Virus record (IMG/VR): IMGVR_UViG_3300042482_000702
Location: 75,355 to 139,354 of that record
DNA from: a virus
Direction: 5' to 3' (one strand)
Length of the DNA stretch: 64,000 bases
Shown here: positions 2,119 to 63,740 of the stretch, one piece after another
Layout of the letters: the number at the start of each line of letters is the position of its first letter
How positions within the stretch are numbered: the stretch's first letter is position 1
The notes under the pieces: generated by a model
The model's database searches: none
The model's input: the letters and a program-made list of their open reading frames with translations, nothing else
What the model was told of the DNA's origin: nothing
Made by a program: the position numbers and the translations under genes

Positions 2119-3225
2119 TTATGAGTTTCTTAATTGCATTGAGATATTAGTGGTTTGATAATTACTGATGTATATACCAAAGTTTATTCCTGACCAATAT
2201 CCAGCATCAGGGCTATTAATAGAAGTAGTCACCGGAGATTGAAATAAATTTGAAGTTCCGCCAATACTACCACTATTCAACGAATCTACAAACCATTTAG
2301 TTTTTGCCGGATAATTACTAAAAGTCGCAAACCATAGATACTTTGGAGAAGAAGAAACATTAAAATTAATGGTTATTGTTCCCGCAGCACTTGACAACTC
2401 TTTATTTGCCGCTCCACTTGAAATAAGAGCCGCAATTCCTGATGTTGTTGGCTGTGTTGATGACACACCCCAAAAATATGGGTATATATTTGTGTAAGTA
2501 TATGTAGTACTGTTATAATTAGTTGACGACGCTTGTGGTGCATTAGAATTTCTAACTAACGGAGTTCTCACATCAAATGAACCTTTATTACCTTGTTTTG
2601 GTAATCCCGCGTTATAATTACCTCTAGAATTATAAGTAGTTGTTGTAAATGTGTTTGGATTTGAAGGTGCTGGTAAAGTAAAAACTTCAGAATAAGTCGT
2701 AGGGTTTATTGAATATGTTAGATTTGGATTATTAGGGTCCGCGTAACCAAATTGGTCAGAAATATTAGTTGCTGAAGAAATAATTAAAAATGTATCAGTA
2801 AAAATTGGATTACCATTTCTTAATAATTGTAATTGAGTATATGCACCCGCATCATTTTTAACCCCCGTTGCAGTTAATGATAGTGAAATTGTTGACCCAA
2901 CCTCAGCAATGGTGTTTGAAACACCTCCAATAGAAATTGTTGGTATTGTATATGCTGGTTGTACTGTTGGAAATAATAAATCGTTAAATAAATCAATAAA
3001 AGTATCACCATATAAATCATTGACTGTAGTTCCTGCAGGAATTCCTCCCACCGTGATTGGCATCGCTAATGTTGGGTCTAAAAAAGTATTATACGATAAT
3101 ACTTGAGCTATATTAGCCTTATAGGATGACCCTTCAGGACTATCTGTTACATCATAAGGTTTTACAATATGTACTAAATCGGCAAGGGTGACTCCGGTCG
3201 CTAAGATTCTATCGGTTAATCTCAT
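2119..3225 (-). CDS. Putative virion structural protein, 368 aa
   Basis: No family is recognised with certainty. The N-terminus (MRLTDRILATGVTLADLVHI) is followed by a helical part, and from about residue 90 the protein is rich in Thr, Ser, Asn and Gly with alternating beta-strand patterns, including an Ig-like stretch (SIGGVSNTIAEVGSTISLSL). This composition fits a phage tail or fibre-associated protein. It lies directly before the repeat-rich fibre gene and after two small SprB-like genes, so a virion surface role is likely. Start ATG at 3225 follows an A-rich leader. Function beyond 'structural' is not supported. Confidence 0.65.
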   Translation of the reverse strand: MRLTDRILATGVTLADLVHIVKPYDVTDSPEGSSYKANIAQVLSYNTFLDPTLAMPITVGGIPAGTTVNDLYGDTFIDLFNDLLFPTVQPAYTIPTISIGGVSNTIAEVGSTISLSLTATGVKNDAGAYTQLQLLRNGNPIFTDTFLIISSATNISDQFGYADPNNPNLTYSINPTTYSEVFTLPAPSNPNTFTTTTYNSRGNYNAGLPKQGNKGSFDVRTPLVRNSNAPQASSTNYNSTTYTYTNIYPYFWGVSSTQPTTSGIAALISSGAANKELSSAAGTITINFNVSSSPKYLWFATFSNYPAKTKWFVDSLNSGSIGGTSNLFQSPVTTSINSPDAGYWSGINFGIYISNYQTTNISMQLRNS

Positions 3226-3258
3226 TTTTTTAAATAATATTTATATGTGATAAATAGT

Positions 3259-3564
3259 TTAATTTTCGAAATCGTACAAGATATTATCCATAAATTCAAA
3301 ATTTTCAAAATCTTGAAATTGTTTATACCCCAATAAAACTATACAAGAATAGATTTTAAATACCTCACAACCATTTGGCCCAATTAATTTAATACCCAAT
3401 GACGGAGCATTCTCAAATTGTGGTGGTAAATATATATTTACATAAGGTGATGGAGGTTGACTAATCGTTGCCATCAAAATACATTGATTCCCATAGATAT
3501 CACAAGCATAAACTGTGTATGGAGGGTTTAACCCTGATATTGAATATATTGCAATTACTCTCAT
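3259..3564 (-). CDS. Small SprB-like single-domain protein, 101 aa
   Basis: The N-terminal half reads like one SprB/adhesin repeat: IYSISGLNPPYTVYACD, then a beta-strand segment and IKLIGPNGCEVFKIYSC. The pattern 'G-x-x-PP-Y-x-x-Y-x-C ... D/N-G-C-E' also occurs in the 71-residue gene at 32586 on the opposite strand, so the two are probably related. SprB repeats are known from gliding-motility adhesins of Flavobacteria. It lies between two virion genes. A role as a small accessory fibre subunit is inferred. Confidence 0.6.
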   Translation of the reverse strand: MRVIAIYSISGLNPPYTVYACDIYGNQCILMATISQPPSPYVNIYLPPQFENAPSLGIKLIGPNGCEVFKIYSCIVLLGYKQFQDFENFEFMDNILYDFEN

Positions 3565-19273: not shown

Positions 19274-20335
19274 TTACGATGTTTTTACATAACTTAATCT
19301 AACAATATTGTCAACAACTTCTTCCATTGGTTCATCTATTGGTTCTTCAACGACTTCTTCTATTGGTTCATCTATTAGTTCCTCCAATGGTTCTTCAACG
19401 ACTTCTTCTATTGGCTCCTCGATTGGTTCTTCAACGACTTCTTCTATTGGTTCATCTATTAGTTCCTCCAATGGTTCTTCAACGACTTCTTCTATTGGCT
19501 CCTCGATTGGTTCTTCAACGACTTCATCTATTGGTTCATCTATTGGTTCTTCAACGACTTCTTCTATTGGTTCATCTATTAGTTCCTCCAATGGTTCTTC
19601 AACGACTTCTTCTATTGGCTCCTCGATTGGTTCTTCAACGACTTCTTCTATTGGTTCATCTATTAGTTCCTCCAATGGTTCTTCAACGACTTCTTCTATT
19701 GGCTCCTCTATTAGTTCCTCCAATGGTTCTTCGATTGGCTCCTCAAACACATCTGATTGTACAATATTTTCCGTATAACCCAATTCAGTTACAGTAAATT
19801 CATCGATTATAATATCTGAAGATTTTTCAATAACAGTAACAGGTATCACAACTTGATTATTTTCATCAATTAATTCATCATATTTTACAAAAAAATGTAA
19901 AGATGTTAATGATATAATTGGTAATAAACCACCACTTAAAAATGCTAACCACCTTTTCAACGATACTACATCAGTAAGGTCTGAACCAAACATTTCCCAT
20001 ATTGGACCTGTCAATTCAACCCACGACTTAAATAAGACACTATTAGCATCAATCTCTTTATAGGAAAAGAATATATTACCAATCATCTGTATGAAAGTTA
20101 CCATTCCAAACATAAACCAGACACCTCCTTTAATTTTATTTGTTGCCGCCAATAAAGCTGTCATAGCACCTATTTCAATCGCAATTGATAAATATATTGC
20201 CCAACTAATTGGATTTGTTAAATTATACCACGAAACAACGTGTGATATTGATATTCCAGCAACCAAAAAAATTGGTACTAAAAACATAGCCCTGATTGGA
20301 TGAGTCTTAACCCATTCTAAAATTATTTTATTCAT
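19274..20335 (-). CDS. Multi-pass membrane protein with Glu/Pro repeat tail, 353 aa
   Basis: Four membrane segments (about 15-32, 45-65, 70-91, 130-148) are followed by a tail of about 145 residues made of EEPIEEVV / EEPLEELID units. The tail is extremely acidic and probably extended or elongated in the cytoplasm. The membrane part resembles no family I can name. The stop of the upstream TM gene overlaps the start by 4 nt, and the amidase gene follows after 27 nt, so this may be part of the lysis region. Holin-like activity cannot be claimed. Confidence 0.65.
   Translation of the reverse strand: MNKIILEWVKTHPIRAMFLVPIFLVAGISISHVVSWYNLTNPISWAIYLSIAIEIGAMTALLAATNKIKGGVWFMFGMVTFIQMIGNIFFSYKEIDANSVLFKSWVELTGPIWEMFGSDLTDVVSLKRWLAFLSGGLLPIISLTSLHFFVKYDELIDENNQVVIPVTVIEKSSDIIIDEFTVTELGYTENIVQSDVFEEPIEEPLEELIEEPIEEVVEEPLEELIDEPIEEVVEEPIEEPIEEVVEEPLEELIDEPIEEVVEEPIDEPIDEVVEEPIEEPIEEVVEEPLEELIDEPIEEVVEEPIEEPIEEVVEEPLEELIDEPIEEVVEEPIDEPMEEVVDNIVRLSYVKTS
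19318..19745 (-). repeat. 84-nt higher-order tandem repeat (48 + 36 nt)
   Basis: The DNA consists of near-identical units of 48 nt and 36 nt that alternate, giving an 84-nt period (28 residues). Copies differ by only a few bases. The repeat keeps several frames open on both strands, which explains Ser- and Leu-rich frames on the plus strand. Confidence 0.85.
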
Positions 20336-20601: not shown

Positions 20602-20633
20602 AATTTTTAAATTAGTTTTACTATAAAAGTAAA

Positions 20634-20663
20634 AAACCTTCTATCATAATAAATAGAAGGTTT
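20634..20663 (-). terminator. Terminator after the sigma factor gene
   Basis: Perfect 11-bp stem (AAACCTTCTAT/ATAGAAGGTTT), 8-nt loop, followed by TTTT on the minus strand. It separates the sigma factor transcript from the membrane genes downstream. Confidence 0.85.
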
Positions 20664-20671
20664 CACATTTT

Positions 20672-21472
20672 TTACATATAATCGAAAAGTATCGAACTTT
20701 CATTCCTTAATTTTCTTAAGGCTTTTTCCTTAATCTGCCTCACTCTTTCTTTAGTGAGATTAAAATCACCACCAATGTCTTCTAAAGTTCTTGGAGTGCC
20801 CGTTAACCCAAAATAATCTCCAACAATGGTTTTCTCTCGATTATCCAAAACATCCAATAAAGAAATTAATTGTTGTTTTAATTCATCTTTGGTATTAAAG
20901 ATTGCGTCCGGCATATCAGCCTGTTCATTCTTTATAATATCAACTAAAGTATCTCCGTCCTCGTTAATATTCATATCTAAATCAACGATTGATGGTAAAT
21001 TTTGGAACTTATCCGAGAGTTTACCTCCCGTCGATTCAATTTCTTTTTTAGCTCTTTGTAAATCCTGAACCACATTAACCGGAAGTCTAATAGTCCTAGC
21101 ATTATCGTTTAATGATTGGAGAATGGATTGTTTAACCCACCACACAGCATAGGATATAAATCTTAAATCTCTAGACCAATCAAAATGACTAATCGCCTTC
21201 ATAAGTCCTAAATTACCTTCAGCAATTAAATCGGGAAAATCTAACCCTTGATTTTGATATTGTTTAGCCACAGTAATCACAAAACGTAAATTCCCCTCAA
21301 GTAATTCTTTATTAATTGACTCTAATTCTTTTTCCGTTAGATTTCCCGAACTAATCAATTTTGATAACTCTCTTTCCCTGTCCGGAGTCATCACTTTAAT
21401 TTTACGAATGTCCTTTAAATACAATTGTATTTCTTCTTGATTAATAGGAATCCCCGAATTTTTCTCTTTCAT
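20672..21472 (-). CDS. Sigma-70 family factor of Bacteroidetes RpoD type
   Basis: ATG at 21472 is preferred because it comes 1 nt after the upstream gene's stop; a longer frame from 21535 would overlap that gene. The 266 residues cover regions 1.2 to 4: LRFVITVAKQYQNQGLDFPD and EGNLGLMKAI (region 2), RFISYAVWWVKQSILQSL (2.3-2.4, DNA melting and -10 recognition), NARTIRLPVN (3), and TLEDIGGDFNLTKERVRQIK (4.2, -35 recognition). This is the layout of the short primary sigma factor of Bacteroidetes, not of T4 gp55. It would direct host RNA polymerase to phage promoters. Preceded by a host-type promoter at 22072. Confidence 0.92.
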   Translation of the reverse strand: MKEKNSGIPINQEEIQLYLKDIRKIKVMTPDRERELSKLISSGNLTEKELESINKELLEGNLRFVITVAKQYQNQGLDFPDLIAEGNLGLMKAISHFDWSRDLRFISYAVWWVKQSILQSLNDNARTIRLPVNVVQDLQRAKKEIESTGGKLSDKFQNLPSIVDLDMNINEDGDTLVDIIKNEQADMPDAIFNTKDELKQQLISLLDVLDNREKTIVGDYFGLTGTPRTLEDIGGDFNLTKERVRQIKEKALRKLRNESSILFDYM

Positions 21473-21473
21473 A

Positions 21474-22040
21474 TTATTTTGAATATTGGTTAAGTAATTG
21501 TAATTCTTCTTTTGATAATGACTCGATTCCACCATCCGCTAATTTATCAAATAATTCGTCAAATGTTGGTGTTCTTTTTTTATTTTTAAGTTGACTAATA
21601 TCGTCATCATCATCTTCATCAACAAATTCAGATAAATCTAAAAAGAATTCATTTCGAATATTATTCATTAACATAGTTCGTACCTCATAGTCATTTTCAT
21701 CACAAATTTTGTTTTTACCTGACATATAGTCATTAATACCATCGTTAAATAGATGTTTAGCAACTTCATCCGGTAATCCGTATGACAAATTGTCATTTGT
21801 ATATGGTACTAAAAAATAACTTATTGTGTCATAGTCTAATATCATATCCACATAGTCTTTAACATCCTGATAGGAATCTAAAGTTGAGATTGTGTACACG
21901 GTTGATTCAGGACCAAAGTAAAAATTGACCTTGGGGATGTCCGAAATAACACTTAATTCTTCCGCAATTTGTTCTGCGAATTCTTGGGGGTTGTCATTTT
22001 TTGTAAGTACAAATAAAATGTATTTGGTTAAGTTCTCCAT
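21474..22040 (-). CDS. Hypothetical acidic protein, 188 aa
   Basis: Not recognised. Starts MENLTKYILFVLTKNDNPQE; an alpha/beta N-terminal part, an acidic stretch of six Asp/Glu (VDEDDDDDIS, about 140-150) and a C-terminal helix (TPTFDELFDKLADGGIESLS). It is the first gene of the sigma factor transcript, 1 nt before it, and 31 nt after a host-type promoter, so it could act in early gene control. Confidence 0.6.
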   Translation of the reverse strand: MENLTKYILFVLTKNDNPQEFAEQIAEELSVISDIPKVNFYFGPESTVYTISTLDSYQDVKDYVDMILDYDTISYFLVPYTNDNLSYGLPDEVAKHLFNDGINDYMSGKNKICDENDYEVRTMLMNNIRNEFFLDLSEFVDEDDDDDISQLKNKKRTPTFDELFDKLADGGIESLSKEELQLLNQYSK

Positions 22041-22071: not shown

Positions 22072-22105
22072 CAAAGATAGTAAAATTATTTTAATATCCG
22101 CCAAA
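22072..22105 (-). promoter_or_regulatory. Host-type promoter for the sigma factor operon
   Basis: TTTG, 22 nt, TATCTTTG on the minus strand. The -7 box is exact; the spacer is at the long end of the range. It drives the 188-residue gene and the sigma factor. Confidence 0.65.
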
Positions 22106-23515: not shown

Positions 23516-23539
23516 AAAAAATTCCTCATTATTGAGAAA
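23513..23539 (-). terminator. Terminator after gp46
   Basis: 7-bp stem (arms TTTCTCA/TGAGGAA with one G-U pair), 4-nt loop, then nine Ts on the minus strand. It overlaps the stop codon of the gp46 gene. Confidence 0.75.
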
Positions 23540-25856
23540 CATAACTAATATTTTCCTCCTTTTTAATCCTGACCACATTGTCTGCCCAATTAGTGACTAA
23601 TGGGTTATGTGTGATGACAAATATCTTATCAAAATACTCTTTAATCTTGGTAAAGAACTCTGATATCATATCCAAATTATCGTTGGATACCTTCCCGAAT
23701 ACCTCATCAAACACCACAACGTTCGCTCTTGGTAATGAACATATCTTACTCAACACCGCTCTCAACGCTAATGACGCAATTGACCTTTCATATCCGGACC
23801 CGGATGCCATTGGTTTTTCAATTTGAGTGTTATTATCAATCATAAGGAAATCTACCTCATTCTTGTCGTTAATCTTAACCTCTAACCTAAAGTGGCAACT
23901 ATCCTCCAATAACCTCTGAAGTTCACTATTAATAAGTGGCATCATTGTTTTCATTATGAGTTTGGTTACACCATTTTTACCAAAGATTTCCAAATAGATT
24001 TTGTATATTTTTTCTTTCTCCGCTTCTTCCCCAATTTTTCTAATTGTCTCCAAGTTAGATGTTATCTTGGTTGTAAGATTGGTTATTGTAAATTTATTGT
24101 TAGAGATACTGGTTTCAATAGTTTTTTTCTCACCTTCAAGTTCGTCTATTCTAATACCCGCTTTGATTAACAATCCATCGGTTTTGTTATTTTCAATAAC
24201 CTTATCCTGAACTTCGGTGTATCTATCCAACTTGGTTTTCAACGCGTCAATCATTAGTTGGAATCTCTCAACACTTAATTCATATTTTTCTTTAATAAGT
24301 TTGTTTTTCTCATACTCATCAAATTCTTTTTTAAGATTAACAAAACCTTCCTCTTTGCTGGTTAACTCACGCATTAACCCCTCTAATTCCCCTTTGTGCG
24401 TGATAAACCCCGCAAGCCCCCCAATTTTTGCATTGGTAATTGCGGCGTTCATAAGTTCAATACCACAGTGTTCACATTTGATTCCACCATCGACAGAACT
24501 TTTAAGTTCCTCAATGTTTTTAATCTTTGCGTTGTTGTCAGCTTGTTTTACAACTAAATCCTTAATCTCTTGTTTTACCTCATCGTGTTTATCCTCGTGG
24601 TAAAATTCGGATGGTTCAACAACCTTAACCCCGTCTCTATCTGAAATGGATTTGGTTTTTTGTATCTCCAACCCGTTAATCTCTTCTTGAACCTTATCCG
24701 GAGAAACCATTGTTAATTCCTTATCAATGTTATGTTTGGATTTTAATAACCCATCTCTATATTCTTGACCTTTAAGGATTCTCTCTTTAGTATCACCCAA
24801 TTGACCATCCAATGTAAGATTAGTTTCCGTTAGATTATCAATCGTATCTTGACTGGTTTGGTTATCCGTTTTAAGTTGTTCCGAGTTATAGATGTTAGAC
24901 AACATTCCTTTTGAAAATTCACTATAAATTTCTTTTGCTGTTTCTTCCTTACGCTTAAGAAAATCTAACCCCATAAACCTTGAGAGAACCTGACCCCTCG
25001 CCGTGGGTTTGGCATCAATTAGTTCTTCCAAGTTGGTGGCAGTGGTTAGGATGGTCATTAAGAAGTCCTCTTTAGTCCCGATAGATGTTTTAATAAACGC
25101 CTCGGTCTCTCTTCGTTGTTCTCCGGTGAAGTTCTGCAAACTACCATCAGACAATCTTTTATAAAAGTCCAACTCGGTCTTAACCGTCCATTCATTCTTC
25201 TTGGATAACTTTCTCTCAATATTTCTCAATATGATATACTCATCACCGTCAATTGTAATTTCACCCTTTACAGCAACTTTATTTCTTTCAGTGAATCTAT
25301 TAAATATCTCCTCAGCCTTTGATGTCTTGGTGGTCTCATTAAAGAATAAGAACATAAGTAAATCCACTGTAAGAACCGTCTTACCTCCAAAATTTGGTGG
25401 GTTTGATTCCACAACCGTAATCCCATCACATTTCTCAAAATCTATCTTCTGATTCTCACCATAGGATAGGAAGTTTGAAAACTCAATGTTTTTAATATAC
25501 CATCGTTTAAATGGTGCCGCATCGGTTTGGGTCATTGATAATCTATTATCCACAACTCCATTAAGTTGGTAGATATCATCATAATGTCCAATGTTCCCTT
25601 TTGACTCCAAGAATGAACGAACTAACTCTAATTGATAGTTCTCATCCAAAATGTTAAAGGAGATGTCTACGGTATGTGTGGTGTCGTCAGCAACCTTTGT
25701 TTTTGTAATAACATTAACATTGTTGGTTTCATACTTCTTTTGGAAATAATGACGAACACTCTTTATCTTTTCTTGCGTAAAATTCTCGGCATAATCCTCC
25801 CACACAATCTGTAGGTAAGGATTATCCAAGTTTGTGATATCTAAATCTTTTATCAT
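23529..25856 (-). CDS. 46: gp46/SbcC-type recombination nuclease ATPase subunit
   Basis: ATG at 25856 is preferred (MIKDLDITNLDNPYLQ), with a small possible extension upstream. 775 residues, longer than T4 gp46 (560). After an unusual N-terminal domain of about 125 residues comes the ATPase head: FSNFLSYGENQKIDF, Walker A as NPPNFGGKT (about 150-158, atypical), a long coiled coil with a zinc hook KCEHCG (about 462), the signature MASGSGYERS (about 685), Walker B VVVFDEVF (about 712) and VITHNP. With gp47 it forms the Mre11-Rad50-like complex that resects DNA ends for recombination-dependent replication and degrades host DNA. Confidence 0.92.
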   Translation of the reverse strand: MIKDLDITNLDNPYLQIVWEDYAENFTQEKIKSVRHYFQKKYETNNVNVITKTKVADDTTHTVDISFNILDENYQLELVRSFLESKGNIGHYDDIYQLNGVVDNRLSMTQTDAAPFKRWYIKNIEFSNFLSYGENQKIDFEKCDGITVVESNPPNFGGKTVLTVDLLMFLFFNETTKTSKAEEIFNRFTERNKVAVKGEITIDGDEYIILRNIERKLSKKNEWTVKTELDFYKRLSDGSLQNFTGEQRRETEAFIKTSIGTKEDFLMTILTTATNLEELIDAKPTARGQVLSRFMGLDFLKRKEETAKEIYSEFSKGMLSNIYNSEQLKTDNQTSQDTIDNLTETNLTLDGQLGDTKERILKGQEYRDGLLKSKHNIDKELTMVSPDKVQEEINGLEIQKTKSISDRDGVKVVEPSEFYHEDKHDEVKQEIKDLVVKQADNNAKIKNIEELKSSVDGGIKCEHCGIELMNAAITNAKIGGLAGFITHKGELEGLMRELTSKEEGFVNLKKEFDEYEKNKLIKEKYELSVERFQLMIDALKTKLDRYTEVQDKVIENNKTDGLLIKAGIRIDELEGEKKTIETSISNNKFTITNLTTKITSNLETIRKIGEEAEKEKIYKIYLEIFGKNGVTKLIMKTMMPLINSELQRLLEDSCHFRLEVKINDKNEVDFLMIDNNTQIEKPMASGSGYERSIASLALRAVLSKICSLPRANVVVFDEVFGKVSNDNLDMISEFFTKIKEYFDKIFVITHNPLVTNWADNVVRIKKEENISYVSQ

Positions 25857-25903
25857 TATTGTATAATTAAATTCTATTGCGGGATTAAATAAATCCATTT
25901 CTT

Positions 25904-28636: not shown

Positions 28637-29416
28637 TTAATTCACTAATCTTTCTGTTCCATTTATTATATCGTCAAATGATTTCATCTTAAATGACAAA
28701 AAAGGTTTTGGATTATCCAAATCAACAAAACTATACTCATCACTATCTAAATCATAAACTCCGAATCCGTGTTTGTTTATACTTTCCCCAAAATTTTGCT
28801 GAATAGTAGAACCAATCATCACACCTCTTTTACCATTTGGTATGTTAAATGTTGCTCGTTTATGAACATCCCCACATAACACAAGGTCAAGACCGTTAAA
28901 TTTTTCTGTGTCATATGCGTGAGAACCAAAATCAAAACCCAAATCAGTTGTTAATCCCGCAACCGGGTCGTGAAACAACCCAATCTTAAATCCAACCGCT
29001 GTATCAATCTCTGGTGGAATATTTCCTTGAAATTGTGAATATACACACCAAGACACATTTTCATCCTCGTAGATACCTCTATTCTTGTAATAAACAATAT
29101 TGGGGTTATTTAAGTTATCCACAATTGGTGTGATACTATCCAACCTATCATTATTGTTTATTAACGCATCGTGATTTCCCGGTATAAGTATTGTTTTAGC
29201 AATTGATGAACATTCTGTTAACACCCAAGACGCTATTTCTATAACTTCGGGTGTTAGTTGATTTTTAGAATGTAAGAGGTCACCGGTGAAGACAATTCTA
29301 TCGGGACTAATCTCTCTAAATTTTTCTAACATATTATTTAAAACACTACGATATAAATCGTGGTCTTTAAATAATTTTAGATGTAAATCACTAAAGTGAA
29401 CTAATTTCTTTATCAT
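28637..29416 (-). CDS. 47: gp47/SbcD-type recombination nuclease subunit
   Basis: 259 residues, calcineurin-like phosphoesterase fold with all metal motifs visible: FSDLHLK (D10, H12), FTGDLLHS, IPGNHDAL, GLFHDP and LCGDVHKR. It is the Mre11-like endo/exonuclease partner of gp46. In T4 genes 46 and 47 are near each other; here they are about 2.8 kb apart, with a cluster of small genes and membrane proteins between. Confidence 0.93.
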   Translation of the reverse strand: MIKKLVHFSDLHLKLFKDHDLYRSVLNNMLEKFREISPDRIVFTGDLLHSKNQLTPEVIEIASWVLTECSSIAKTILIPGNHDALINNNDRLDSITPIVDNLNNPNIVYYKNRGIYEDENVSWCVYSQFQGNIPPEIDTAVGFKIGLFHDPVAGLTTDLGFDFGSHAYDTEKFNGLDLVLCGDVHKRATFNIPNGKRGVMIGSTIQQNFGESINKHGFGVYDLDSDEYSFVDLDNPKPFLSFKMKSFDDIINGTERLVN

Positions 29417-31598: not shown

Positions 31599-32498
31599 CT
31601 ACTTTATTTCGTAATAATATTCATCAATATCACCTCTTAAATCCGCAACATCCTTATCCTCAGTTAGTTTAATGATTTTTATTTTACCATATAGTCTACC
31701 CCCATTTAACTGGTGATATAATTTAACCGAATCTTTCCAAGCATCAGAATCAAGACAAATGGTAATATCATTAATTGCTTTCTCATATAATGTTTCAAAT
31801 AATAATTCTGACATATGTTTCCCTAACATAGGAATACTATTGGGTAAGAATAACCCATCAAACACACCCTCAACAATAAAAATCGGTTTAAACCAATCAA
31901 TTAAGTTTTCATTAAATATAATTTCATCCTTTGGTGTTTCAGGGTTTTTATATTTGGCACGACTATTTGGGTCCCAACTTCTGGCAATAAAATAATTTAA
32001 ATACCCCTTTTCATTATATGAAGGTATAATTACTCTACCACCGAAACTACCCTTATCACAAAAACCAATACCGTACTTTTCAATAATATCATCTCCAATA
32101 CCACGAATTTTAAGATAATTGTACGCCTGATTCCTAATTGGATATCTTGGACTACTATCTTTGAATAAAGTAAATCCTTCTGGGAGTACTAACCTTTTCT
32201 TTTTTTCTTCTCTTGGTTTATATTCTTCCGGTTGGAGAACATTATAAATTTTCTTTTGTTTTTTATTACCATATAAGTCAAATAATTTACCTAAAGGACC
32301 TTTGGTATTGTCCACATCCCCGCAAGACCAGCACTTATAAACATGTTGAAAATAATTTACCTCCAAATTACCTTTGTGTTGCCCTTCATCACAATTAACA
32401 CAATCAAACGATATTTGACCCTTATGTCCATAGTGTTGTTTCTCGTCTCCAAGTATTTCTCGTAATAATTCTATTAAAATTTCCGCATCGTCTGACAT
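31599..32498 (-). CDS. DNA primase, zinc-finger and toprim type
   Basis: ATG at 32498 (MSDDAEILIELL) is chosen because a start at 32534 would lie inside the promoter. 299 residues. The N-terminal zinc finger has CVNC (about 32-35) and CWSC (about 56-59). The catalytic core has IVEGVFDGL (toprim Glu, about 209) and CLDSDAWKD (about 248, DxD). It synthesises RNA primers for lagging-strand replication with the DnaB-like helicase encoded about 26 kb to the right. T4 uses separate helicase gp41 and primase gp61, as here. Confidence 0.88.
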   Translation of the reverse strand: MSDDAEILIELLREILGDEKQHYGHKGQISFDCVNCDEGQHKGNLEVNYFQHVYKCWSCGDVDNTKGPLGKLFDLYGNKKQKKIYNVLQPEEYKPREEKKKRLVLPEGFTLFKDSSPRYPIRNQAYNYLKIRGIGDDIIEKYGIGFCDKGSFGGRVIIPSYNEKGYLNYFIARSWDPNSRAKYKNPETPKDEIIFNENLIDWFKPIFIVEGVFDGLFLPNSIPMLGKHMSELLFETLYEKAINDITICLDSDAWKDSVKLYHQLNGGRLYGKIKIIKLTEDKDVADLRGDIDEYYYEIK

Positions 32499-32503
32499 AA
32501 AGA

Positions 32504-32535
32504 CAAAGATAATAATAAATTTTATAATATCCAAA
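32504..32535 (-). promoter_or_regulatory. Host-type promoter for the primase
   Basis: TTTG, 20 nt, TATCTTTG on the minus strand, an exact match. The -7 box ends only 5 nt before the ATG, so the transcript should begin at or very near the start codon. Confidence 0.75.
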
Positions 32536-33620: not shown

Positions 33621-33731
33621 ATAAAAGTGTAATAAAAAAAAATAATATTACTTACATCCAACCTTTCTATATAACACTTGAGTTTTCAGGAAGATTAACA
33701 AATAAATTAATAATCACAATATTTATAATAC
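33621..33731. other. Short gap with the TATTTATA box of the 798-aa gene
   Basis: AT-rich, no gene. A weak inverted repeat (GTAATA/TATTAC) lies near 33632-33652 without a T run, so I do not call a terminator. Confidence 0.3.
33720..33727 (+). promoter_or_regulatory. TATTTATA box 4 nt before the 798-aa gene
   Basis: TATTTATA on the plus strand with only 4 nt to ATG 33732, the same short spacing as for gp25 (3 nt). If it is a -10 box, the start codon would be at or near the transcript start. Confidence 0.4.
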
Positions 33732-36128
33732 ATGGGATTCATATTAAAAAACACATCAGGGTTAATTAACACTAGATTAACAGACGCCGCAAGACAAAAA
33801 CTATCACAAGGTAGTTTTAACATCTCTTATTTTCAAATAGGTGATAGTGAAGTAACCTATAACGCTTTTGGTGAGTTAAATTTATCAAGCCTTAATATAT
33901 TAGAACCAAATTTTAATTCTCAAAATAAAACCGGTTCTCCTCAAAAAAATAAACAAAATATTAAATATCCTTACTATGTAGATGGAACCGAAGGTAATAC
34001 ATATGGAATACCTTATATGGCTTCTGATGTTAGTCCTATATATAACAGCGCAACAATGAGAGGTTTTTTCACAGGTAACACCACAAATGGAACTATAAGT
34101 AGTTGGAGTGCGTTAACAGATAACCAACACGTAGTTAATTCGAATTATGTTATCGATATGTTTTCATTAATAGGTAATAACACAGTATCCATTAAATATT
34201 CCGGTTGTAACACCAATATAGTTAGACAACCCTCTATTGGAGATTTTATAACAATTTATTACGATGGAAATGGATACAATAATTGTTCTTGTGATTTAGG
34301 CACCCCAATTACACCAACACCAACACCAACACCTACTGTAACACCATCTTATGATGAGTGTGCTATATATCCAACACCAACACCATCATCCACTTGTTGT
34401 TTAACACCAACACCAAGTTGTGGTCCTGAACCAATAACGGAATGTGTTATGTCAGTTTCATGTGGTTATACAATATTAACATATAAAATTGTAGATATTT
34501 GTAATTTTGTATTAACAGTAGACAGACCTTTACCTAATTTTACTAATTTAAATGAAGATTGTTATTACGCCAGAACATTAATCTACCCACCAAACATGAC
34601 ATCATTATATGATAGTATCACACCTTCTCAACATTGGCGTAATGATGTCATTAATTTTGAATCCATTTGTAATACAGATGAATTTGATGTTAAAATTTGG
34701 AACATGAACATCCCTTGGTCTGAAAGTCCTGCCGGATTAAATGATGGTATATATAAAGGTTACACTAAATTTCGTTCAACATCTTATTTAGGCACAAAAG
34801 AATATTTAGGTTATATGTCAAATAGTGGACAAACCATTAACAACACGGTTAATTATGTCAACTCACTTGGAGATGTTATTATTGTACCACCTAAAGACCA
34901 AAAGGCAATTTCAATAATTCATTATACTAATCAAAGTATAGATTTGTTTTATGGTGAAAAATTTGCGTTAGAACCATACGACAATGCAACCCCTGAAGAT
35001 ACAACAGGTGAGGCTAGAAACTTTAAATTACACATACCAACATTAATGTGGCATAAATCACAACCCTTTTGTATTGGACAAACTTTTTGGGTTGACCCAC
35101 CTGGGTTTGATAATAAAGGATTATTTGAAGTTCATTATATTCAATCAACTAAAAATCCTGAAATGAATCAACCTGGTATTAGATATTATAATTTATGGGA
35201 CACAAACGCTAATGAAAACGAATACCCTAATAGGGTTGGTAAAGTGTTTCCTGACCAAAAAATTATTGTTATCGATGATGAGGAAATTATCGCTGCTTTA
35301 TCTTATAAGTCAAATAGAAACTGGACATTACCATCACCAAGAATATCTTTAATCGCACCTAATAGTTGTGAAATAAATAATGGGTCAATATCTGTAGATG
35401 GTGTTTTATCTGGTTCATCAGAATATATGTATGTCACGTATAGATTAGGTAATAGTGAATTATCCACAAATTCATTACATTGTAATTACTATTCAAAAAT
35501 ACAAGGAACAGCAATTACACCAACTAATCTTATAACTAATAATGTTGGTATTAGATTTGGTAATGAATTTCCATATTTAAATCAAATACCTGAATCACCA
35601 ATCCTTAATACAGGATTTGTTGCCGACACATTTGAAATAATATGTCAGAAAGTAATAGGGGATGTTAGACCAGACCCTTCAGAGTGGAGAGTTATTGATT
35701 TTACATCGATGGTTAGTGCAACAACAATTAATGGATACATTACCGTAGAAGGTTTAACAGGAACAACATTTGTTATTACATCCGACGATTATGATAACGC
35801 CGAAAACAACAATTATACTTTAGATTATCTTTCAATACCGAGTAAAAATTCTACCGGTACTTCGTTAAATTTTGGTGATGAATATTATTTTTATGGTGCG
35901 TTAGAAACTGATATTCAAGCAACAATTTATGAAATGAAATATAAAGTAAATCTAAGTGCAACTGAATTTCAAGCAAGTTCTAACCCTACATGGTCAAGCA
36001 CCGCAAAACCATATATTTCAGAAATAGGTCTTTACGATACTGAAGATAATCTTATGATTATATCAAAGCTACAATCACCCGTTTTAAGACAAGGATTGCA
36101 ACAGTTTTTAATTAAATTTGATTTTTAA
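33732..36128 (+). CDS. Large tail/fibre protein with Thr-Pro linker, 798 aa
   Basis: The N-terminus (GLINTRLTDAARQKLSQG, then SFNISYFQIGDSEVTYN) resembles the start of phage tail-collar or fibre-attachment domains, which bind the protein to the baseplate. A Thr-Pro-rich Cys-containing linker spans about residues 191-235 ([12 protein letters not shown]). The rest is a long beta-rich, Asn- and Thr-rich region with several repeats of 'TNxxxNN' type. The family cannot be named exactly. Genomic position suggests a tail-associated receptor-binding protein. Confidence 0.65.
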   Translation: MGFILKNTSGLINTRLTDAARQKLSQGSFNISYFQIGDSEVTYNAFGELNLSSLNILEPNFNSQNKTGSPQKNKQNIKYPYYVDGTEGNTYGIPYMASDVSPIYNSATMRGFFTGNTTNGTISSWSALTDNQHVVNSNYVIDMFSLIGNNTVSIKYSGCNTNIVRQPSIGDFITIYYDGNGYNNCSCDLGTPITPTPTPTPTVTPSYDECAIYPTPTPSSTCCLTPTPSCGPEPITECVMSVSCGYTILTYKIVDICNFVLTVDRPLPNFTNLNEDCYYARTLIYPPNMTSLYDSITPSQHWRNDVINFESICNTDEFDVKIWNMNIPWSESPAGLNDGIYKGYTKFRSTSYLGTKEYLGYMSNSGQTINNTVNYVNSLGDVIIVPPKDQKAISIIHYTNQSIDLFYGEKFALEPYDNATPEDTTGEARNFKLHIPTLMWHKSQPFCIGQTFWVDPPGFDNKGLFEVHYIQSTKNPEMNQPGIRYYNLWDTNANENEYPNRVGKVFPDQKIIVIDDEEIIAALSYKSNRNWTLPSPRISLIAPNSCEINNGSISVDGVLSGSSEYMYVTYRLGNSELSTNSLHCNYYSKIQGTAITPTNLITNNVGIRFGNEFPYLNQIPESPILNTGFVADTFEIICQKVIGDVRPDPSEWRVIDFTSMVSATTINGYITVEGLTGTTFVITSDDYDNAENNNYTLDYLSIPSKNSTGTSLNFGDEYYFYGALETDIQATIYEMKYKVNLSATEFQASSNPTWSSTAKPYISEIGLYDTEDNLMIISKLQSPVLRQGLQQFLIKFDF

Positions 36129-54887: not shown

Positions 54888-55346
54888 TTAAATATTAATA
54901 ATTACAAAATCTTTTTGATTAAACACATCATTGTTAAGTCTATAATCAATTCTAACTTTAGCGGTATGTTCTTTAGTTCCTATACCAGGAACCCTATATA
55001 CTCTATCATCATTACCATCAATATAAGAACCTTTATCCTCCTCACCTTCTGATGCAGCGGTAATACTAATATTGGTTATTGTGATATTAGGTATGTAATC
55101 TTCAACTGAAGACCTTATTTCAGCATCTATATCCGAAAATGTTGGACCATCTAAAGGTTCAAAAATAAACTCATATAATCTAGTTCCAAAATCAGGTAAA
55201 TAATATCTAGTTCCCTTTCTTGTCAATAATAAATGAACTAAACTACTTCTAATCTCTTGGTCATTATAATCAGAAAGGTCTAAATACTTACCATCATACG
55301 AATCTCTAAAAGGAAAATTAATCCCATATGTTTTACCATCACTCAT
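54888..55346 (-). CDS. 25: Baseplate wedge protein gp25-like
   Basis: ATG at 55346 (MSDGKTYGINFPFRDS) is chosen: a TATTTATA box lies 3 nt upstream, and the longer frame from 55403 would begin inside the nrdA terminator. 152 residues, near T4 gp25 (132). The family core is present: LSDYNDQEIRSSLVHLLLTR, KGTRYYLPDFGTRLYEFIFE, then EIRSSVEDYIPNI. gp25 is a lysozyme-like wedge protein that helps start sheath assembly. First gene of the tail operon. Confidence 0.92.
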   Translation of the reverse strand: MSDGKTYGINFPFRDSYDGKYLDLSDYNDQEIRSSLVHLLLTRKGTRYYLPDFGTRLYEFIFEPLDGPTFSDIDAEIRSSVEDYIPNITITNISITAASEGEEDKGSYIDGNDDRVYRVPGIGTKEHTAKVRIDYRLNNDVFNQKDFVIINI

Positions 55347-55349
55347 AAC

Positions 55350-55357
55350 TATAAATA
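55350..55357 (-). promoter_or_regulatory. TATTTATA box at the head of the tail operon
   Basis: TATTTATA, 3 nt, then ATG 55346. It sits between the nrdA terminator (55397-55420) and gp25, exactly where a late promoter for the tail operon is needed. Confidence 0.5.
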
Positions 55358-62725: not shown

Positions 62726-62817
62726 ATGTCTATGTTAATTTAATTTTTTAGTTTGTTTAGACAAGTTGAGCACCGAGTAATCCCGGTGCCCAAGTCATAT
62801 GTCTAAGTTTTGTTTGA
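62718..62817 (-). promoter_or_regulatory. Structured leader between gp32 and uvsX
   Basis: On the minus strand a hairpin of nine or ten base pairs (arms GGGCACCG and CGGTGCTC, 8-nt loop) is flanked by TTAGAC and GTCTAA arms. The sequence TAGACATATG occurs once in the 5' flank and again over the uvsX start codon. The arm GTCTA could pair with either copy, so an alternative structure covering the start codon is possible. Gene 32 mRNA of T4 has a translational operator pseudoknot; a similar control is inferred here. No T run follows, so a terminator is unlikely. Confidence 0.45.
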
Positions 62818-63681
62818 TTAGAATGGCATATCGTCTTCCGGTTCAACTCCAGCTTGTGGGTCAACTGGAGCAGATGTTTTACCACTACCACCGAATGAAG
62901 ACTCACTATCTTCAGCGTTTCCATATACATAACCACCTTTTTCAGTACTCCATTTAGGACTTTCTCCTCTTGCAAGAGCTTCTAAATACTCAACAGGTTT
63001 TTTAGAATAAACATCTTCCCAAGTTAATTCATCATTAACCCATTCATCACCAATAACTTTATTCTCATGAATTGCAGATGGGTCGTCATACATAACAGTT
63101 TGGATTACAGTGTAAAAAGCTCCTTTTGGTGTTTTTGCTTTAGTTAATTCCAAAATAATATCTCTACCTTTTTCAGGGTCAGCAATATCACCTTTGTTTC
63201 TGTAGATAGGTATAATTTTATCTAAAATACCTTCGTTTTTGTAGTTGTCTTTAAATCTCCAAAATTTAACACCATCATCCTCATTATCTCTATCAATAAC
63301 TTTTACAATGTAAAATTTACGAGATAAGTATTGTTTAGCTAATTCTTTATCAGAATCTCTACCTGTTGAACGTAATTCTTCGTAAACCTCATTTAAAGGT
63401 GAACGCTCATTATCGTTTTTTCCCGGGTCATAAAATTTTTGGAATTTTCCATCAACTTGGATTTCGTGATACCAAACAACTTTAAATGGTGAAGAACCAT
63501 CTTTTGTTGGTAAAATCCTTAATCTTCGTTGCCCTTGAGTCTCCTTATCTTGAAGGATTGCCGCGAAGTATTTTTTCATTCTTTCTTCTTGTGTGAATTT
63601 TGAGGTAGAAGAAGAACCTCCTTGTTTTGATTGCTCGTATTGAGCCAAAACTGCGTCTAATGAATTGTTGTTTGTCGCCAT
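62818..63681 (-). CDS. 32: gp32-like single-stranded DNA-binding protein
   Basis: 287 residues (T4 gp32 301). The N-terminus is Ser/Gln-rich, the core has basic/aromatic segments (RRLRILPTKDGSSPFKVVWY; KFYIVKVIDRDNEDD; VKFWRFKDNYK), and the tail is acidic, ending EPEDDMPF. No CxxC zinc motif is seen, unlike T4 gp32. The end DDMPF resembles the DDDIPF tip of bacterial SSB, which binds partner proteins. It protects ssDNA and coordinates UvsX, encoded downstream. A near-consensus host-type promoter lies upstream. Confidence 0.82.
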   Translation of the reverse strand: MATNNNSLDAVLAQYEQSKQGGSSSTSKFTQEERMKKYFAAILQDKETQGQRRLRILPTKDGSSPFKVVWYHEIQVDGKFQKFYDPGKNDNERSPLNEVYEELRSTGRDSDKELAKQYLSRKFYIVKVIDRDNEDDGVKFWRFKDNYKNEGILDKIIPIYRNKGDIADPEKGRDIILELTKAKTPKGAFYTVIQTVMYDDPSAIHENKVIGDEWVNDELTWEDVYSKKPVEYLEALARGESPKWSTEKGGYVYGNAEDSESSFGGSGKTSAPVDPQAGVEPEDDMPF

Positions 63682-63706: not shown

Positions 63707-63740
63707 TAAAAGTATAAGTGTCTACGAGTGGTTTGTCAAA
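63707..63740 (-). promoter_or_regulatory. Near-consensus host-type promoter for gp32
   Basis: TTTG, 22 nt, TACTTTTA on the minus strand, one mismatch from TAnnTTTG. It lies between the terminator of the upstream gene and the ATG at 63681. Confidence 0.45.

What the first reader, a model, noticed from the sequence alone, without database searches (positions are those of the whole stretch)
20672..21472. Phage-encoded sigma factor of the host's primary (RpoD) type
The protein has regions 1.2, 2, 3 and 4 with the wording of the short Bacteroidetes RpoD. Most T4-like phages use gp55, a very different sigma. A host-type sigma in a phage could keep early promoters active, compete with the host sigma, or recognise the TATTTATA box through altered region 2.4. 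Its own operon has a host-type promoter.
Basis: partly seen in the sequence, partly recalled or inferred. Interest (0 to 1): 0.7.

Follow-up and report, generated by a model that had tools for sequence, protein, structure and literature searches.

The report
Jumbo phage's own RpoD-like sigma factor
A large lake-type virus of Bacteroidota-like bacteria carries its own, long-diverged version of the bacterial protein that tells RNA polymerase where to start, next to a separate late-gene sigma factor, and it probably uses it to switch on a middle set of genes for DNA replication and protein folding.

Summary
Confirmed: 20672-21472(-) encodes a 266-aa sigma-70 protein with regions 1.2, 2 and 4. It is an old phage-specific lineage: 50 distinct relatives, all exactly 266 aa, form one clade on a very long stem, about 43% identical to Bacteroidota primary RpoD. 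It is not a recent capture and not gp55.

The same 322-kb phage also encodes a divergent gp55-like sigma elsewhere (both co-occur in all five relatives of 270 kb or more), so this protein is probably not the late sigma.

It sits in a conserved two-gene unit (80/80 loci) behind a DUF6576-like protein. A host-type promoter lies upstream and a terminator directly follows in the window.

Genome-wide, three promoter classes appear: host-type TTTG-N19-TATCTTTG; TATTTATA before conserved, including baseplate, genes; and a third, TTTGAC-N17-TATACTT, before gp32, DNA polymerase, DnaK, ClpB-like, FKBP and NUDIX genes. No AsiA or MotA was found.

Best reading: an early-expressed phage sigma that redirects host polymerase to middle promoters, working like SPO1 gp28. 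Which sigma reads the third class is inferred, not shown. RpoD-like sigmas in T4-type jumbo phages are already reported.

The parts
20672..21472 (-). RpoD-like sigma-70 factor, 266 aa (P0001)
   Evidence: Pfam r1.2, r2, r4; 50 distinct relatives, all 266 aa
21474..22040 (-). orf188, conserved partner gene directly upstream; predicted ferredoxin-like N-terminus, acidic linker, DUF6576-like C-terminal helical hairpin
   Evidence: DUF6576 E=6.5e-6, 0.7 bits under the curated cut-off; directly upstream of sigma in 80/80 loci; AlphaFold2 pLDDT 73
22072..22105 (-). host-type (Bacteroidota sigma-A) promoter of the orf188-sigma unit, TTTG-N22-TATCTTTG
   Evidence: -7 type box upstream of orf188 in 67/80 relatives
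20631..20662 (-). intrinsic terminator directly after sigma
   Evidence: hairpin -15.3 kcal/mol, z = -6.5, followed by U run; pattern found in 64/80 relatives
63710..63740 (-). third-class promoter TTTGACA-N17-TATACTT upstream of the gp32-like SSB gene (62818-63681)
   Evidence: 21/21 distinct upstream sequences of relatives carry it; between G000 and G008 the elements are 13/14 identical, the spacer 8/17
62818..63681 (-). gp32-like single-strand DNA binding protein, putative target of the sigma
   Evidence: phrog_1192 E=7e-10
55350..55357 (-). late-type TATTTATA box before the gp25-like baseplate gene (54888-55346)
   Evidence: conserved in 4/4 genomes; phrog_261
33720..33727 (+). late-type TATTTATA box before the 798-aa gene 33732-36128
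   Evidence: conserved in 4/4 genomes
32504..32535 (-). host-type promoter TTTGG...TATCTTTG before the primase-like gene 31599-32498
23529..25898 (-). gp46-like recombination ATPase near the sigma unit (T4 gp55 also lies near gp47)
   Evidence: assigned from its sequence; T4 and other T4-like maps
28637..29416 (-). gp47-like nuclease
   Evidence: phrog_100 SbcD-like E=6e-23

Best explanation
P0001 is a phage-specific, ancient derivative of an RpoD-type sigma that works as the middle-stage sigma of a T4-type jumbo phage infecting Bacteroidota. Host RpoD holoenzyme makes the early orf188-sigma transcript from a Bacteroidota-type promoter. P0001, with or regulated by the co-expressed DUF6576-like protein, then binds host core polymerase and directs it to a third promoter class, TTTGAC-N17-TATA(C/A)TT, in front of replication (gp32, DNA polymerase) and chaperone genes (DnaK, ClpB-like, FKBP). 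A separate gp55-like sigma later takes over at TATTTATA late promoters. Shown: the protein, its lineage, the two-gene unit, the coexisting gp55-like sigma, and the three motif classes. Inferred: core binding, timing, and the pairing of P0001 with the third class.
For: Sigma-70 regions 1.2, 2 and 4. The only protein over the cut-off for either Sigma70_r2 or r4 in the 322-kb record, so the only phage protein that clearly has a -35-reading domain. A second, gp55-like sigma is present and coexists in 5/5 relatives of 270 kb or more. Third promoter class: all 21 distinct gp32 upstreams, 37/60 ClpB-like and 17/57 DnaK upstreams (looser pattern for the last two). Motif trained on G000/G002 and tested on G007/G008: score >=12 in 9 sense vs 1 antisense vs 2.0 shuffled; >=14 in 6 vs 0 vs 0.3. 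Orthologue concordance outside the training genes: 5/10 vs 18/187 (p=0.002); antisense 0/8. Target genes: FKBP, NUDIX, Hsp70, ClpB-like AAA, family B DNA polymerase. In T4, DNA polymerase and other replication genes have middle promoters (PMC2988021). No AsiA or MotA homologue. Phage-specific changes lie in the DNA-reading parts: S442, D445, A447, T449, I450, V454 in region 2.4/3.0 (E. coli-like, unlike Bacteroidota) and K for R584 in region 4.2. Published Flavobacterium promoter classes named in the text read (sigma-A TAnnTTTG and its SM5 variant TAnnTTGY, sigma-54) do not match the third class, and host DnaK/ClpB use sigma-54 (PMC9723704).
Against: No expression, binding or host data. Exact third-class sites are few per genome (2 in G000), no more than a shuffled genome gives for the exact pattern; the case rests on position and conservation. 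The motif shares TTTG with host promoters, so host RpoD might read it weakly. UvsX, DnaB and NrdAB show no third-class site within 110 bp. The scan of 61 Bacteroidota genomes was uninformative, because its positive control (the host-type pattern) was not enriched over the reversed pattern either.
Confidence: 0.5

Rival explanations
1. P0001 keeps reading host-type (TTTG/TATCTTTG) promoters, keeping phage early genes active when host RpoD is inactivated, degraded or outcompeted.
For: Clear kinship to Bacteroidota RpoD, 32 of 40 diagnostic columns; host-type promoters are present in the phage (28 sense vs 7 antisense); Q437 and L440 as in Bacteroidota.
Against: Long stem, region 3.1 loss, R584K and the changed region 2.4/3.0 patch, all invariant or nearly so across the sampled phage clade; the third promoter class would then need another reader.
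Confidence: 0.2
2. The third promoter class is read by host RpoD, perhaps with a phage activator, and P0001 does something else.
For: TTTG is shared with host promoters and some members are close to TATCTTT (gene 242763-243233 of G000).
Against: The -35 reads TTTGAC with spacing one base longer, and G at -5 is missing; host classes described for Flavobacterium in the text read do not include it.
Confidence: 0.17
3. P0001 is the late sigma and reads TATTTATA.
For: Located in the gp46/gp47 neighbourhood, where T4-like phages keep gene 55.
Against: A separate gp55-like sigma exists in the same genome and in all five large relatives; TATTTATA sites show no conserved -35, as in T4 late promoters; profile comparison of P0001 with gp55 gives probability 1%.
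Confidence: 0.07
4. P0001 mainly redirects host transcription to reprogramme host genes, as reported for phage sporulation sigmas, rather than phage promoters.
For: Phage-encoded sigmas that alter host programmes are known (PMC9429907, found).
Against: Phage genomes carry a candidate cognate promoter class of their own.
Confidence: 0.06

Closest known systems
Bacteroidota primary sigma factor RpoD (sigma-A)
   Same: Regions 1.2, 2, 4; about 43% identity; 32 diagnostic residues shared
   Different: Region 3.1 deleted, insertion before 2.1, changed region 2.4/3.0 patch, R584K, very long stem branch, phage-borne
RpoD-like sigmas of group 2 (gp23-type) jumbo phages (PMC7824862)
   Same: T4-type jumbo phage with a fuller RpoD-like sigma; group 2 includes Bacteroidota phages
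   Different: That overview suggests acquisition from cells and the passages read give no cognate promoters; here an ancient clade, obligate partner gene, coexisting gp55-like sigma and a candidate promoter class
SPO1 gp28 (middle sigma of a Bacillus phage; from general knowledge)
   Same: Works like it: early-made phage sigma redirecting host polymerase to middle promoters, followed by another late factor
   Different: Different phage group; homology to gp28 was not tested
T4 gp55 (late sigma)
   Same: Phage-encoded sigma-family protein in a T4-type phage, near gp46/47
   Different: gp55 has no full region 4 and reads TATAAATA (general knowledge); P0001 is RpoD-type and does not match a gp55 profile. 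P0002 is the gp55-like protein
T4 MotA/AsiA sigma appropriation
   Same: Same job proposed: switching on middle replication genes
   Different: No AsiA or MotA homologue found; a replacement sigma instead of a remodelled host sigma

Membership tests
sigma-70 family, RpoD-type | Regions 2 and 4 above Pfam cut-offs | tested here: met
   59.9 and 53.7 bits vs 24 and 24.1
sigma-70 family, RpoD-type | Region 1.2 | tested here: met
   28.6 bits vs 22
sigma-70 family, RpoD-type | Region 3 | tested here: not met
   No Sigma70_r3 hit; about 24 residues of region 3.1 missing. It is therefore a region-3-reduced RpoD relative, not a bona fide primary sigma
RpoD equivalog (NCBIfam) | Score over curated RpoD cut-off | tested here: not met
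   188 bits vs 572 for NF006666, 176 vs 354 for TIGR02393
sigma-70 family, RpoD-type | Binds core polymerase and initiates at specific promoters | not testable with these tools
   needs biochemistry
T4 gp55 family | Profile similarity to gp55 | tested here: not met
   hhalign probability 1.2%; for P0002 30%, E=5e-4, and PHROG 234 E=0.006
SPO1 gp28-type middle sigma | Early expression, middle-promoter recognition | not testable with these tools
   only promoter types are known here
SPO1 gp28-type middle sigma | Homology to gp28 | not tested
   no claim of membership is made

The most novel reading that the evidence does not exclude
A T4-type jumbo phage lineage runs a three-sigma cascade: host RpoD for early, its own RpoD-derived sigma with a new specificity (TTTGAC-N17-TATACTT) for middle replication and chaperone genes, and a gp55-like sigma for late genes. 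The middle sigma would have an obligate DUF6576 partner protein and would replace the MotA/AsiA route.
Probability: 0.45. Interest if true: 0.7.

Novelty: new variant of a known kind. Interest (0 to 1): 0.5.

Why it matters
T4-type phages are the textbook case of a phage that remodels the host sigma (AsiA/MotA) for middle genes. A widespread uncultured lineage that instead appears to replace it with a diverged sigma would show that the middle switch can be rebuilt. It would also give a natural experiment in how an RpoD changes promoter specificity, because both the sigma's changed residues and its candidate promoters can be read from hundreds of genomes. If confirmed, it would also offer Bacteroidota genetics a sigma-promoter pair distinct from the host's.

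Tried and rejected
Late-sigma role: rejected as unlikely because of the gp55-like P0002. Recent capture from a host: rejected, since the phage sigmas form one clade with a stem of 1.5-1.9 substitutions per site; the exact attachment point cannot be resolved (AU p=0.34 for grouping with Bacteroidota RpoD). De novo EM motif search found only the late motif clearly. Exact-pattern counts of the third class against a Markov genome were not enriched; position and conservation carry the case. Host-genome pattern scan was inconclusive because the positive control failed. Structure searches: orf188 gave only weak ferredoxin-like matches (best E=0.008); P0002 gave sigma factors at the top but none below E=0.001. 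gp45 was not detected with PF02916. Most TATTTATA-linked genes tested have no PHROG match, so the label late rests mainly on baseplate genes.

Full report
Observation. The ORF at 20672-21472 on the minus strand encodes 266 residues. Pfam finds Sigma70_r2, r4 and r1_2, all over their cut-offs, and no r3. NCBIfam's best hits are RpoS and RpoD equivalogs, far below their cut-offs. The best solved relatives are primary sigma factors such as Clostridioides difficile SigA. In annotated phages the nearest is 39% identical. In IMG/VR, 443 loci encode relatives; the best 80 (77-98% identity) give 50 distinct proteins, every one 266 residues long.

Context. The window is part of a 322,477-base virus record. 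Relatives of 272-322 kb show shared gene content and, for some, the same order around the sigma gene. The sigma gene lies near gp46- and gp47-like genes. T4 keeps gene 55 near 47, and a cyanophage and Stenotrophomonas phage Moby have it next to 47.

A second sigma. A genome-wide search with Sigma70_r2 gave one weak extra match, leading to P0002 (249 aa, outside the window). It matches the PHROG 'late sigma transcription factor' (E=0.006). Its profile aligns to a T4 gp55 alignment (E=5e-4 but probability only 30%). Its predicted structure (pLDDT 70) retrieves mostly sigma factors at the top, though none below E=0.001. It is present in all five sigma-bearing records of 270 kb or more. I treat it as a probable, not proven, late sigma.

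Anatomy of P0001. Against Bacteroidota primary-type RpoDs, the phage clade lacks most of region 3.1, has an insertion before region 2.1 and a shorter tail. Of 40 diagnostic columns it sides with Bacteroidota in 32 and with E. coli-type RpoD in 8; six of the eight lie at E. coli positions 442-454, at the region 2.4/3.0 boundary. R584 of region 4.2 is K in all 11 phage rows and R in all 42 hosts. Phylogeny puts the phage sigmas in one fully supported clade on a very long branch, outside the Bacteroidota radiation in the best tree, but nested placements are not rejected.

Operon. In 80 of 80 loci the gene directly upstream encodes a protein ending in a DUF6576-like hairpin. In the window it is preceded by a Bacteroidota-type promoter and followed, after sigma, by a strong terminator. 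Terminator and promoter patterns recur in 64 and 67 of the 80 relatives. The partner's model is a ferredoxin-like domain plus a helical hairpin, without a confident structural match.

Promoter classes. Upstream regions of four large genomes show (a) TATTTATA about 20 bp before starts, 50 sense vs 27 antisense in G000 (the longer ATATTTATA 38 vs 10), conserved before 32 orthologous genes, including the gp25-like baseplate gene; (b) TATCTTTG, 28 vs 7, with TTTG about 19 bases upstream, the published Bacteroidota sigma-A type; (c) TTTGAC-N17-TATACTT-like sites mostly 45-65 bp before starts. Class (c) was first seen upstream of gp32 by comparing relatives. In 80 further loci, all 21 distinct gp32 upstreams carry it; ClpB-like genes carry a looser form in 37/60 and DnaK in 17/57. 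With training on two genomes and testing on two others, scores of 12 or more occur 9 times in sense, once in antisense and about twice in shuffles; outside the training genes orthologues agree more than chance (p=0.002-0.005) and not in the antisense control. Downstream genes are gp32, family B DNA polymerase, Hsp70, ClpB-like, FKBP and NUDIX.

Mechanism. Class (b) fits host RpoD. Class (a) has no -35 and fits a gp55-type sigma. Class (c) has a -35 and differs from both; P0001 is the only phage protein with a clear region 4. AsiA and MotA are not detectable. The simplest account is host RpoD, then P0001, then P0002, in the manner of SPO1. Pairing of P0001 with class (c) is an inference; host RpoD reading class (c) is the main alternative to that pairing.

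Known versus new. RpoD-like sigmas in T4-type jumbo phages were reported as a fuller type close to cellular RpoD (PMC7824862), and a huge phage with its own sigma-70 is mentioned in PMC7162821. What I did not find in the literature searched is a candidate cognate promoter class, the obligate DUF6576 partner, or coexistence with a gp55-like sigma in such phages. The search covered open-licence papers only.

Noticed in passing
G000:C1:229120-229866 (+), outside the window: Divergent gp55-like sigma (P0002) with an apparent C-terminal helix-turn-helix; present in all large relatives.
   Followed up: yes
21474-22040: DUF6576-like C-terminal hairpin in the sigma partner; the domain is not named in any paper of the library searched.
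   Followed up: partly
62726-62817: Inverted repeat (GGGCACC...GGTGCTC type) between the gp32-like and UvsX-like genes, with similar repeats at the same place in G002, G003 and G004.
   Followed up: no
19274-20335: Membrane protein with a long tandem EEPIEEVVEEP-type repeat; the repeat part aligns only partly among relatives.
   Followed up: no
G000:C1:23533-23625 (+): Weak Sigma70_r4-like helix-turn-helix (15.7 bits) in a 151-aa ORF.
   Followed up: no
G000:C1:311009-312883, 256566-258617, 2862-3290: Phage-encoded DnaK, ClpB-like ATPase and FKBP isomerase, all with third-class promoters.
   Followed up: partly
L204 (LR756500.1, 462 kb uncultured phage): Distant phage sigma (31% identity) with a short stretch of DNA similarity to the window's sigma gene.
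   Followed up: no
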